From contig NZ_JAVDDV010000016.1 of assembly GCF_030848565.1 (NCBI RefSeq), forward strand, positions 1-64,000: a stretch of 64,000 bases of DNA. The letters run 5' to 3'. Made by a program: the position numbers and the translations under genes. A model generated the notes under the pieces. That model made no database searches. It saw nothing but the letters and a program-made list of their open reading frames with translations, and was not told where the DNA came from. Within the stretch, counting starts at the first letter, position 1. Each line of letters starts with the position of its first letter. Below are positions 57,801-62,159 of the stretch, one piece after another. Source of the DNA: Natronolimnohabitans sp. A-GB9 (GTDB taxonomy: Archaea > Halobacteriota > Halobacteria > Halobacteriales > Natrialbaceae).

Positions 57801-57892
57801 CGGTCTCATACGGACTGCTGTACCGATTTACCGGCGCAACCGCAGCCCGGGTCGCGGTTGCGCCGGTAACGACTTACAGTAGTCCGTCTCAG
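57801..57892. repeat. Palindromic intergenic element with 16-bp hairpin
   Basis: Outer arms ctcatacggactgctgta and, inverted, tacagtagtccgtctcag enclose ttaccggcgcaaccgc (57828-57843) and its perfect complement gcggttgcgccggtaa (57854-57869). It overlaps the stop of the Bat-type gene and may act as its terminator. Confidence 0.75.
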
Positions 57893-59970
57893 TCTGCGTC
57901 CGTTCCGTCGCCGAGCTCGAAGAACTCACAGAGTACCGTTTTCAGTCCCTTGCGAAGGTGTTGGTGCATCGTCGGTGGTGAGACACCCATGGTTTCGGCG
58001 ATCTCCTCACCGGTGCTCTCGCGTGGCCATTCGAAGAACCCGCTGTAGTAGGCGAGTCGCAACGTCGTGAGCTGTCTATCGGTCAACTGATCGAGGATCC
58101 GGTTTCGTCGATCGGCCGCCGTTCGGACCGGCCGGTCGATCTCACGGCGGGCGACGAGTTCGGTGTTCTCGTAGATGACCGTCAGTGCGTCGGCGATCTC
58201 TCTGACGTTTGCGTCCTGTGAGACCTCGATCAGACAGGTCCCGACGCCGTCCGTGACGGTGACGTCCCGAACTGTCGCCCCGTGGTTCGCAAGCGTCCGG
58301 ACGCCCGATTCGGCCAGTCGCATCTCGATCGTACAGCTGTCGCCGCTGTCGTGGATGACCCGACACTCTTCGATCGAGGAATGGTCGGTGGCCTCCTCGA
58401 GGACGGTCTCGCCGTCGAGCCCCTCGACTCTGACGTACTGGACGGTCCGCCCTTTCGCTGTCGTCCCGGCCCACTCCAGTGAGATCGTACAGTCGTATTT
58501 CTCCGAGAGGTCGAACGAGAACGTCTCGCCGCCGTCGATGCGGAACTCGAGTTCGACGACGGTGTCGGCAAACAGCAGCTGTCGGCTTTTTACAGCCATG
58601 ATCGTAAAGCCGATCGTCTCACCGAGCAGATTGAACCCGGCCTCTTCGCTGTCGCTGACGGCGTCTTCGGTGCTTGCGAGGACGGTCACTGCTCCGTAGA
58701 CTGATTTCCCGTGGGTGATCGGGACGGCGACCGCCGACTGGACGTCGTTCTCGCGTGCGGCCGCACGCAGTTGTGCCGGACATTGGTCGCTCTCGGGAAC
58801 CGCCGTCTCCATCTGGATTTCGCCCGTCCGGACGGCCCGGTGGGCGAGCAACTCGTCTTCGTCGATCCGTTCCGCGACACACTCGAGATACGTCTCCGAC
58901 TCGCCGGCACCGGTGCGGTACGCGAGCGTTCCTTCACCCGTTCGTTCGCCGATCCACGCACCACAGTACAGTTTCGAATCGACTAACTGTTCACAGACCT
59001 CTTGCTCGATGACGTCACGGGACGGTGCCTCGACCAGGGTTTCGATCACTTGCCCGACGACGGCGCTGATCCGGTTGAGCGTCTCGAGTTGGTTCTGTCG
59101 CGATCGAAGCTCCCGTTCGCGTCTCGCTCGCTCAGTGATGTCCCTGGCAAGCCAGACGACGGCTCGTTGTCCGTCGATCCGTTCGTCGATCGGGACCACT
59201 CGAGCCTCGAAGCGCCGTTGCCCTTCGGTCGTCTCTGCGGTGTACTCGATCGACTGGACCTCTTCGGTCCGAAGCGTCCGATCGATACACGCCTGTAACT
59301 CGGCGGCGACGTCGTCCGGGAACACCTCTTCGATCCGTTTTCCCGGCAGTTCGTCGGGCGACGCGGTGTAGAGTTCACCGCTCTCGGGCCGGACGTTCGC
59401 CTCGTAGTAGGTCCCGTCTGCACCGATGACGAACGCCTCGTCGGGTAACTCGCTCGCGATGATTCGCTGATAATCGTCGTCCGCTGTCACCGAATCGCCA
59501 GTTTTCGTTGTCTCATTTTCCGAGCCGGATGCGATTACGCCTGCGTCTACCGACCCGACTTCGGTGTCGGTATTCGTATCGATGGTCTCGACGATCCGCT
59601 CGATGCGGTCCCCGTCCGTGTCCGGCGAGACGTACTCGTCGGCGTTTCCCCGTACTGCCGCCGCGGCGATCGTCTCACTTCCCGTTGGCGGAGCGACGAT
59701 CGTCGGCGTGGTCGGTACGGTGTCCTCGAGTCGCTCGAGGACGTCCGTCGTTCGGTCCGGCTCTTCGAGTTCGAGGACGATGCCGCTAGGACTGGAGTTC
59801 CGTCCGTCGCGAGCGCCGCTTTGCAGAACGCCTTCGGATTCTTCCTCGAGCGTGGCGGGTGAGACCGAACGGATGTCGAACGGCGTCGCATCACGAAGGT
59901 GCGCTCGCAGCGAACTCGATTCGACCGCCGTGATGAGAACGATCGGCCCGGAACTGGTCTGAGTGGACAT
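57889..59970 (-). CDS. Bat-type regulator: receiver-like, PAS, GAF, HTH-10
   Basis: 693 residues. N-terminal receiver-like fold lacking clear phospho-Asp context (1-150), PAS about 165-290 (IIASELPDEAFVIGADGTYYEAN), GAF about 300-455, a Bat-specific beta domain about 465-600 (VVELEFRIDGGETFSFDLS), and a C-terminal HTH-10 (LTDRQLTTLRLAYYSGFFEWPR, GEEIAETMGVSPPTMHQHLRKGL). This is the bacterio-opsin activator-like family, abundant in haloarchaea and responsive to oxygen, light or other cues. No opsin gene is near; target unknown. Confidence 0.9.
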   Translation of the reverse strand: MSTQTSSGPIVLITAVESSSLRAHLRDATPFDIRSVSPATLEEESEGVLQSGARDGRNSSPSGIVLELEEPDRTTDVLERLEDTVPTTPTIVAPPTGSETIAAAAVRGNADEYVSPDTDGDRIERIVETIDTNTDTEVGSVDAGVIASGSENETTKTGDSVTADDDYQRIIASELPDEAFVIGADGTYYEANVRPESGELYTASPDELPGKRIEEVFPDDVAAELQACIDRTLRTEEVQSIEYTAETTEGQRRFEARVVPIDERIDGQRAVVWLARDITERARRERELRSRQNQLETLNRISAVVGQVIETLVEAPSRDVIEQEVCEQLVDSKLYCGAWIGERTGEGTLAYRTGAGESETYLECVAERIDEDELLAHRAVRTGEIQMETAVPESDQCPAQLRAAARENDVQSAVAVPITHGKSVYGAVTVLASTEDAVSDSEEAGFNLLGETIGFTIMAVKSRQLLFADTVVELEFRIDGGETFSFDLSEKYDCTISLEWAGTTAKGRTVQYVRVEGLDGETVLEEATDHSSIEECRVIHDSGDSCTIEMRLAESGVRTLANHGATVRDVTVTDGVGTCLIEVSQDANVREIADALTVIYENTELVARREIDRPVRTAADRRNRILDQLTDRQLTTLRLAYYSGFFEWPRESTGEEIAETMGVSPPTMHQHLRKGLKTVLCEFFELGDGTDAD

Positions 59971-60366
59971 ACGATAGCGAGGACGACGCTGGACTGTTCG
60001 ACCGCGTCTCTTTGAGGGAACATCCTGTCGGAAGAAAAGCGTACTGGTAGCGTTGCAGGTCTTGCTGGCACGTCACTGGATCGTCCGATTCGAACTGACA
60101 CTTACGACAATGTTTACACATTGTACACAGTGTGGACTGTGTAATCGGCTGTAGTGCAGTCGAAGCTACCGGACGAACTGTCGGAGAAGTGAGTACGACG
60201 TCCGTACTTGCTTTCGGCTGTGCTTACAGTGGAGCAAGGCGAAAGCCCACCCGCTTTAGCGGTGGGATGAAGCCGACACAGGATTTACTAATCACCCACT
60301 GACTGCTGAGTGGATATTCACTGAGAAATACAACTCTTCACAAGAATCGTCGTACACGACCCAGGT
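59971..60366. other. Spacer: Bat promoter and TnpB left end
   Basis: Contains an imperfect palindrome ttacaca (60114-60120) facing tgtgtaa (60138-60144) near the Bat promoter, and from about 60222 the left end of the TnpB element with a hairpin (60246-60266). Confidence 0.5.
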
Positions 60367-61629
60367 ATGGCGGATCGGGTCGTGACGCGCACCTTCAAAG
60401 CGAGCATCCGCAATCAGACACAGGTGCGTCCCGATCTCGATTCGCTCGCGTTTGCTGCCTCCAAGCTCTGGAATGTTGGACGCTGGCACATTCAACGCAT
60501 CTGGGATGCAATCGGTCATATCCCAAATCACAACGAGCTCACATCGTACCTCAAACGCCACGAACGCTACAGGGATCTGCATTCGCAATCCAGTCAGCGA
60601 GTTCTCCAAGAGCTCGCTGAAGCGTTCAACGGCTGGTACGCCAGCGACGATCCAGATGATAACCCGCCGGGTTATCGCAAACGAGGCGACGAACATCCGC
60701 GGTCCACGGTCACATTCAAGCAGAAGGGCTTCAAACTCGACGCTGAACACGGTTACGTCCGCCTCAGCAAAGGCCGGAATCTCAAAGAACATCGGAGCGA
60801 TTTCGTTCTGTGTTCGTACGAAACACGGCCGGACGTTGATCTTGCAGAGGTGGGAAGCGTTCAGCAGGTCAGAGCCGTCTGGAACGGCGATGACTGGGAA
60901 CTCCACTTCGTCTGCAATGTCGAAATCGAACACTCAGACGCCCCGGGAGAGAAGACAGCTGGCATCGATCTCGGCATCAGCAACGTGGCTGCCGTGTCGA
61001 TCGGTGATGAAACGTTGCTCTACCCGGGGAACGCTGTGAAAGAGGATGTCCACTACTTCCGTCACGTCGAATACGGCACGGAAGGTGATAATGGCCCATC
61101 GAAGAAAGCTGAGTGGGCGCGCCAGAAGAAGGATCGGCGTCGGAAGCATTCGCTTCACGCGTTGACGCGAGACATCGTCGAGCAATGTGCCGATCACGAT
61201 ATTGGTGAAATCGCTGTCGGGCACCCGAAAGACATCCGTGATGATGCTGAGTGGGGTCGCCACGGGAACAAGAAAATCCACGACTGGCCGTTCGACACGA
61301 TCATCGACATGATCGAGTACAAAGCCGCGGAACGCGGGATCAGCGTCCAGCGGGTTGATGAAGCTGGGCTCCGAACGTCGAAGACATGCTGTGCATGCGG
61401 AACGAAAGCCTCACCAAACCGTGTGGAACGCGGGTTGTACGTCTGTGGTGAGTGCGGGTTGGTGGCGAACGCGGATCTGAACGCCGCGGAAAACATGCGA
61501 GCGACGGTAACTCCGAATCCTGAAGAGGATAGGAGTAACGGCTGTTTGGCGCAGCCAGCAGTCCGCCTGTTCGACAAACACACCGGCGTAGTAGCCGGCC
61601 GAGAACAGGTCGCTGACTGCAAACCATAA
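60367..61629 (+). CDS. tnpB: TnpB, RNA-guided nuclease-like protein
   Basis: 420 residues. WED/REC-like N-terminal half (1-190), then RuvC-I in AGIDLGISNVAAVS near 201, RuvC-II region GEIAVGHPKDIRDD near 280, zinc finger CCAC...CGEC near 340-370, and RuvC-III NADLNAAENM near 372. RuvC-I Asp and RuvC-III Asp are present; the canonical RuvC-II Glu (as in VxxED) is Gly here (IAVGHPKD). Solo TnpBs cut DNA guided by an RNA made from the right end of the element; an altered RuvC-II needs a substitute Glu, as seen in rearranged members. Confidence 0.88.
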   Translation: MADRVVTRTFKASIRNQTQVRPDLDSLAFAASKLWNVGRWHIQRIWDAIGHIPNHNELTSYLKRHERYRDLHSQSSQRVLQELAEAFNGWYASDDPDDNPPGYRKRGDEHPRSTVTFKQKGFKLDAEHGYVRLSKGRNLKEHRSDFVLCSYETRPDVDLAEVGSVQQVRAVWNGDDWELHFVCNVEIEHSDAPGEKTAGIDLGISNVAAVSIGDETLLYPGNAVKEDVHYFRHVEYGTEGDNGPSKKAEWARQKKDRRRKHSLHALTRDIVEQCADHDIGEIAVGHPKDIRDDAEWGRHGNKKIHDWPFDTIIDMIEYKAAERGISVQRVDEAGLRTSKTCCACGTKASPNRVERGLYVCGECGLVANADLNAAENMRATVTPNPEEDRSNGCLAQPAVRLFDKHTGVVAGREQVADCKP

Positions 61630-61677
61630 TATCCCAACGCCCGGGAATCCTACGGCTTCAGCCGGAGGAGGGCGTCA
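61520..61677 (+). ncRNA. Putative omega (guide) RNA at TnpB right end
   Basis: The end of tnpB and the following 48 bases form nested hairpins (61637-61675) like those of omega RNAs; the scaffold would end near gcgtca at 61672-61677, and the guide would be the flanking chromosomal bases after it. The 5' border is unknown. Confidence 0.5.
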
Positions 61678-61926
61678 AAGTTCGCCCTGTTCTTTCAGGT
61701 CTTCGATGATGTCGTCGACGAACGTCTCGGGGTCGTCGTACGGGAAGTCCCCGCTCGAGGTCTTCGTGTTCAGTTCCATGGCGGTCATCGAGAAGTCACC
61801 GGACTCGAACTTCGTGCCAGGTCCGTCGGGGAGTGCCGGAACGAGGTCCATCGGACTCGAGATCGGATAGTCTGCGCCTTCGAACGCGTCGATCATCTGC
61901 TCGCGGATTTCGTCTTCGTCTGCCAT
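61675..61926 (-). CDS. MTH865-family protein
   Basis: 83 residues, ATG at 61926 with a purine-rich ggagagcg just before. IREQMIDAFEGADYPISSPMDL, then FVDDIIEDLKEQGEL matches the small archaeal MTH865 family (PF07747), of unknown function, a compact helical fold. Its stop codon (tca on the plus strand, 61675-61677) coincides with the TnpB element border, so the C terminus could have been altered by insertion, but the length is normal. Confidence 0.8.
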   Translation of the reverse strand: MADEDEIREQMIDAFEGADYPISSPMDLVPALPDGPGTKFESGDFSMTAMELNTKTSSGDFPYDDPETFVDDIIEDLKEQGEL

Positions 61927-62159
61927 AGCGCTCTCCAATTACAGCCGATAAATAATAAATTTGCAGGTAGTTGCTACCTGCGATGCTTCCGCTCGAGCGT
62001 TCGTTCCGACGGCGCTTGACTCCCGCCGTCGGTCCGGTTCCCGCTGGTATCGACTCCCTTGCCTTCGACCGCGAACGACCGGTCTCTCGGTGCCGAAACT
62101 GTATCCCGAGAAACAGTTCTTCGAAACAATAATGAGTCCGTAGCGAAGACGTTGTGAGT

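What the first reader, a model, noticed from the sequence alone, without database searches (positions are those of the whole stretch)
60367..61629. TnpB with Gly at the RuvC-II catalytic Glu
RuvC-I and RuvC-III Asp are intact but RuvC-II reads IAVGHPKD. Either the nuclease is dead and may act as an RNA-guided DNA binder, or a nearby Glu, for example in IDMIEYKAAERG about 32 residues on, takes over as described for rearranged TnpB and Fanzor proteins.
Basis: partly seen in the sequence, partly recalled or inferred. Interest (0 to 1): 0.6.

Follow-up and report, generated by a model that had tools for sequence, protein, structure and literature searches.

The report
TnpB with relocated catalytic glutamate
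This is an ordinary haloarchaeal jumping-element gene for an RNA-guided DNA cutter whose third catalytic acid sits at a different, already described place in the sequence, so the enzyme that looked broken most likely is not.

Summary
In detail: a 420-aa TnpB at 60367-61629 (+) has Asp201 (RuvC-I), Gly285 where canonical TnpBs have the RuvC-II Glu, and Asp370 (RuvC-III). It is not a lone mutation. In 164 aligned haloarchaeal TnpBs, 116 have Gly/Ser at this column and all 116 have Glu at column 332, just before the zinc ribbon. All 44 with the canonical Glu lack Glu at 332 (40 have Pro). The two placements never co-occur, and they fall on the two sides of one branch of a tree built without those columns. 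Glu332 is the published 'Ealt' (alternative, Fanzor-like) RuvC-II glutamate. Glu332 follows beta-5 directly in an AlphaFold2 model. The gene is under purifying selection (dN/dS about 0.1) and overlaps an omega RNA (Rfam sot0042). It lies in a complete mobile element (TTAC | 60228-61678 ending TCAA | guide), and a sister species holds the empty site. The dead-nuclease reading is unsupported. The one small variation is two extra residues between Glu332 and the first zinc Cys, fixed in one haloarchaeal clade. Activity was not tested.

The parts
60224..60227 (+). TTAC left-end cleavage site / presumed TAM, outside the element
   Evidence: TTAC precedes the left end in L001, L002, L016, L017, L018, L021, L030; the empty site in sister-species locus L171 reads CTTAC|AGTTCGCCC
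60228..61678 (+). the whole tnpB-only IS200/IS605-type (IS1341-like) element, 1451 bp, right end TCAA at 61675-61678
   Evidence: homology between independent copies L001/L002/L016/L032 stops at or within a few bases of these ends; empty site in L171 fixes them
60367..61629 (+). tnpB, 420 aa, Ealt type
60967..60969 (+). RuvC-I catalytic Asp201 (IDLG)
   Evidence: 115/116 D, 1 E
61219..61221 (+). Gly285 at the canonical RuvC-II Glu column
   Evidence: G 114, S 2, E 0 of 116
61315..61317 (+).
   Evidence: 98/116 only
61360..61362 (+). Glu332, alternative RuvC-II glutamate (Ealt)
   Evidence: 116/116 E, codons GAG and GAA both used; follows strand 326-331 in the model
61387..61455 (+). zinc ribbon Cys341, Cys344, Cys360, Cys363
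   Evidence: invariant in A1 and A3
61474..61476 (+). RuvC-III catalytic Asp370 (NADLN)
   Evidence: 116/116 D
61505..61678 (+). omega RNA scaffold (Rfam RF02656 sot0042, matched 61505-61669), overlapping the end of tnpB and running to the right end
   Evidence: 97.4 bits, gathering 88, E 1.5e-25; suppressed dS over codons 380-420 in the close pairs
61679..61698 (+). presumed guide (first about 20 nt of the right flank, AGTTCGCCCTGTTCTTTCAG)
   Evidence: directly follows TCAA; TTAC plus the first 14 guide bases is intact at the homologous site of G052 and, with one mismatch, of G379 and G077

Best explanation
The gene encodes an RNA-guided DNA endonuclease (TnpB) of the 'Ealt' (RuvC-II-rearranged, D-Phi-G) class. 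Its RuvC triad is D201 - E332 - D370: the metal-binding Glu has moved from strand beta-4 (now G285) to the residue directly after beta-5, just before the zinc ribbon, as in Fanzors. With the omega RNA overlapping the end of its own gene (sot0042), and a guide read from the right flank, it should recognise TTAC followed by the guide sequence and cut unoccupied target sites, so keeping the tnpB-only element in the genome. Shown here: sequence, alignment, tree, selection, element ends, omega RNA match and empty site. Inferred: metal binding by E332, DNA cleavage, TAM function of TTAC.
For: Complete mutual exclusion of Glu at columns 285 and 332 (116 against 44 proteins). One change of state on a tree built without those columns. 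Mixed GAG/GAA codons at 332 show the residue, not the DNA, is kept. dN/dS 0.10-0.14. AlphaFold2 model (pLDDT 80.7) with beta-5 at 326-331 and E332 next; it matches TnpB, Cas12f and mimivirus Fanzor2 structures. The published definition of Ealt in Fanzors and TnpBs is a Glu six residues before the zinc motif (PMC10711439). In Fanzor structures the catalytic Glu lies on the loop between beta-5 and the TNB domain (PMC11423790), and E541 of SpuFz1 binds the metal (PMC10432273). One RuvC-II-rearranged TnpB cut DNA in vitro (PMC10278001). Omega RNA and empty site.
Against: No activity data for this protein or clade. The spacing from E332 to the first Cys is 8 residues rather than the published 6. 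No coordinates were available to measure the D201-E332-D370 geometry, and pTM is only 0.63. No Y1 TnpA was found in this draft genome, so present mobility is uncertain.
Confidence: 0.9

Rival explanations
1. The nuclease is dead and the protein acts as an RNA-guided DNA binder or repressor, like TldR or Cas12m.
For: The canonical RuvC-II Glu is absent.
Against: All other acids are kept, and a Glu at the Fanzor Ealt position is invariant in 116/116. The gene sits in a mobile-type element with omega RNA, defined ends and an empty site, and copies sit at unrelated sites, which gives no sign of domestication.
Confidence: 0.05
2. Glu317 (IEYKA) replaces the RuvC-II Glu.
For: It is common in the family (98/116) and lies in the helix between beta-4 and beta-5.
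Against: It is replaced by T, A, D, R or I in 18 of 116 relatives whose other catalytic residues are intact, and is also common in canonical TnpBs (32/44).
Confidence: 0.02
3. A recently decayed copy of a canonical TnpB, with Glu to Gly as a disabling mutation.
For: Some broken copies of the family exist (C26 in this genome has an in-frame TGA; L032 has a stop).
Against: The Gly is shared by the whole clade with all four Gly codons; the ORF is intact and dN/dS is about 0.1.
Confidence: 0.01

Closest known systems
Ealt D-Phi-G TnpBs (RuvC-II-rearranged TnpBs; Yoon et al. 2023 PMC10711439; the RII-r clades of PMC10278001)
   Same: D-Phi-G RuvC-I motif, no Glu at the canonical RuvC-II column, invariant Glu just before the zinc ribbon
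   Different: 8 rather than 6 residues between Ealt and the first Cys in this clade (52 of the 116 aligned Ealt sequences); the published search pattern finds only 15 of those 52. Which RII-r clade it is was not determined.
Fanzor / pro-Fanzor
   Same: the alternative Glu position
   Different: D-Phi-G, not DPG, in RuvC-I; archaeal tnpB-only element with TTAC/TCAA ends, not IS607
Canonical (Ecan) TnpB, e.g. ISDra2, and AsCas12f1
   Same: fold, zinc ribbon, RNA-guided logic, RuvC-I and RuvC-III Asp
   Different: canonical haloarchaeal TnpBs have Glu at the 285 column and usually Pro at the 332 column; AsCas12f1 aligns the same way
Haloarchaeal IS200/IS605 elements carrying sot0042 (RF02656) RNA
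   Same: the omega RNA family, position and strand; the Rfam family also matches several other members of this tnpB clade
   Different: nothing of note

Membership tests
TnpB (guided_TnpB) | family profile above the curated cut-off | tested here: met
   NF040570 187.3 bits, cut-off 100
Ealt (RuvC-II-rearranged) TnpB | no Glu at the canonical RuvC-II column | tested here: met
   G285; 0/116 Glu
Ealt (RuvC-II-rearranged) TnpB | conserved Glu shortly before the first zinc-ribbon CxxC | tested here: met
   E332 116/116; spacing 8, published 6
Ealt (RuvC-II-rearranged) TnpB | one clade apart from Ecan proteins | tested here: met
   1 change on the tree, SH-aLRT 84, trait columns left out; haloarchaeal sample only, unrooted
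Ealt (RuvC-II-rearranged) TnpB | Glu332 completes the metal site and the protein cuts DNA | not testable with these tools
   needs biochemistry or a solved structure; the model gives topology only
Fanzor / pro-Fanzor | DPG motif in RuvC-I | tested here: not met
   IDLG
IS200/IS605-type element | TTAC/TCAA-type ends, no target duplication, omega RNA at the right end | tested here: met
IS200/IS605-type element | Y1 TnpA in the element | tested here: not met
   the element holds tnpB only; no PF01797 match in the draft genome. tnpB-only elements of this family are known, so this bears on autonomy rather than kinship.
TldR / nuclease-dead TnpB | loss of RuvC catalytic residues with no substitute | tested here: not met
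   Ealt present and invariant

The most novel reading that the evidence does not exclude
The haloarchaeal clade with two extra residues between Ealt and the zinc ribbon has a distinct active-site loop that changes cleavage (for example nicking, or altered collateral activity), making it a subtype of rearranged TnpB that published pattern searches largely missed.
Probability: 0.12. Interest if true: 0.35.

Novelty: new member of a known kind. Interest (0 to 1): 0.15.

Why it matters
Checking only the canonical RuvC-II column would wrongly label this whole haloarchaeal clade as nuclease-dead. The clade is common: 271 of 392 Halobacteria-class genomes searched hold a relative at E <= 1e-60. The case mainly guards against false claims of dead TnpBs. 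The eight-residue spacing is a small addition to the motif definition.

Tried and rejected
A first AlphaFold2 run on close homologues only gave pLDDT 67 and was replaced by a more diverse alignment. A residue-by-residue alignment to a Fanzor structure could not be shown because Cas12f entries filled the printed places; a typed consensus-like probe peptide was no better. The two primary papers on rearranged TnpB/Fanzor that I know of (Altae-Tran 2023 PNAS; Jiang 2023 Sci Adv) are not held, so I rely on PMC10711439, PMC10278001, PMC10432273 and PMC11423790. In part of the 8-spaced clade a second Glu stands at 334 (DEYELATS), exactly six residues before the Cys; it was rejected as the catalytic residue because 334 varies while 332 never does.

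Full report
What was checked. The ORF at 60367-61629 (+) is 420 aa and intact. It is a TnpB by curated models (NF040570 187 bits against a cut-off of 100; PF01385; PF07282). RuvC-I IDLG (D201) and RuvC-III NADLN (D370) are present, and RuvC-II reads IAVGHPKD with G285.

Relatives. The same genome has a second copy at 95% identity (L002) and more distant TnpBs. Of 392 genomes of the class, 271 hold a relative at E <= 1e-60, and 80 more loci came from named haloarchaeal records. An alignment of 164 proteins splits cleanly. In 116 proteins the 285 column is G (114) or S (2) and column 332 is E in all 116. In 44 proteins column 285 is E in all 44 and column 332 is never E (40 P, 2 A, 1 S, 1 gap). 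No protein has both. The remaining four rows are truncated or broken in this region.

Within the Ealt set, E332 is encoded by both GAG (69) and GAA (44) after removal of duplicate rows, so it is kept at the protein level. A tree of 33 representatives, with the RuvC-II and Ealt columns removed, places all Ealt proteins on one side of a branch (SH-aLRT 84; one change). It also needs only one change for the 6- against 8-residue spacing.

Identity of the feature. Yoon et al. (PMC10711439) describe TnpB-family proteins in which the RuvC-II glutamate sits six residues before the zinc motif (Ealt) instead of about 50 upstream (Ecan), with a D-Phi-G clade of TnpBs and a DPG clade holding the Fanzors. 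In SpuFz1, E541 with D383, N385 and D606 binds the metals (PMC10432273), and Fanzor structures place the catalytic Glu on the loop between beta-5 and the TNB domain (PMC11423790). A survey of 59 TnpBs found an active enzyme in a RuvC-II-rearranged clade (PMC10278001). The window protein fits the D-Phi-G Ealt class. Its only departure is 8 residues instead of 6 between E332 and the first Cys, shared by 52 aligned sequences; the published motif pattern catches 62 of 64 six-spaced but only 15 of 52 eight-spaced sequences.

Structure. AlphaFold2 with a 58-row mixed alignment gave pLDDT 80.7 and pTM 0.63. Strand 279-286 holds G285, helix 309-322 holds E317, strand 326-331 is followed directly by E332, and helix 369-379 holds D370. 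Foldseek matches are Cas12f, ISFba1 and ISDra2 TnpB, and mimivirus Fanzor2 (9b0l, E 4.4e-15).

Function and surroundings. dN/dS against L002, L016, L017 and L018 is 0.10-0.14, so the gene has been under purifying selection. Over codons 380-420 dS falls to 0.00-0.07 for the two closest pairs (0.15-0.47 gene-wide), as expected where a second, RNA function overlaps; the counts there are small. That RNA is Rfam RF02656 sot0042 at 61505-61669, 97.4 bits, and several other clade members carry it too. Sense-overlapping RNAs of this kind in Halobacterium are regarded as omega RNAs (PMC12558985).

Independent copies share sequence between the TTAC-flanked left end and the TCAA right end. A sister species has the empty site CTTAC|AGTTCGCCC at the same locus, so the element is 60228-61678 and the guide starts at 61679. 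The intact target (TTAC plus guide start) is absent from this genome, where the site is occupied, but present without mismatch in G052 and with one mismatch in G379 and G077. No Y1 TnpA was found in the draft genome, so the element is tnpB-only and would need a transposase in trans.

Conclusion. The 'missing' catalytic Glu is explained by a known rearrangement, with E332, not E317, as the replacement. The dead-nuclease reading has no support. Cleavage itself, and metal binding by E332 in this clade, remain inferred. Interest is low; the spacing variant is a minor novelty.

Noticed in passing
61675-61938 (-): The element sits exactly at the stop codon of an MTH865-family gene. The empty allele ends CTG TAA; after insertion it reads CTT TGA, with the TGA supplied by the element's right end, so the protein's end (GEL) is unchanged.
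   Followed up: partly
61505-61629 (+): Synonymous change is suppressed in close pairs where the omega RNA overlaps the tnpB coding end.
   Followed up: partly
L007:895-2130 (+) and L013:1459-2709 (-): Two far-diverged TnpBs of the same genome also lack the canonical Glu and have Glu at the alternative position (spacing 6); they form a second Ealt lineage.
   Followed up: partly
L003 / L160 (contig C26 of the genome): A broken Ealt tnpB copy with an in-frame TGA in the same genome.
   Followed up: no
57889-59970 (-): Neighbouring gene is a PAS-GAF-BAT-HTH_10 (bacterio-opsin activator type) regulator; the element lies between it and the MTH865-like gene.
   Followed up: no
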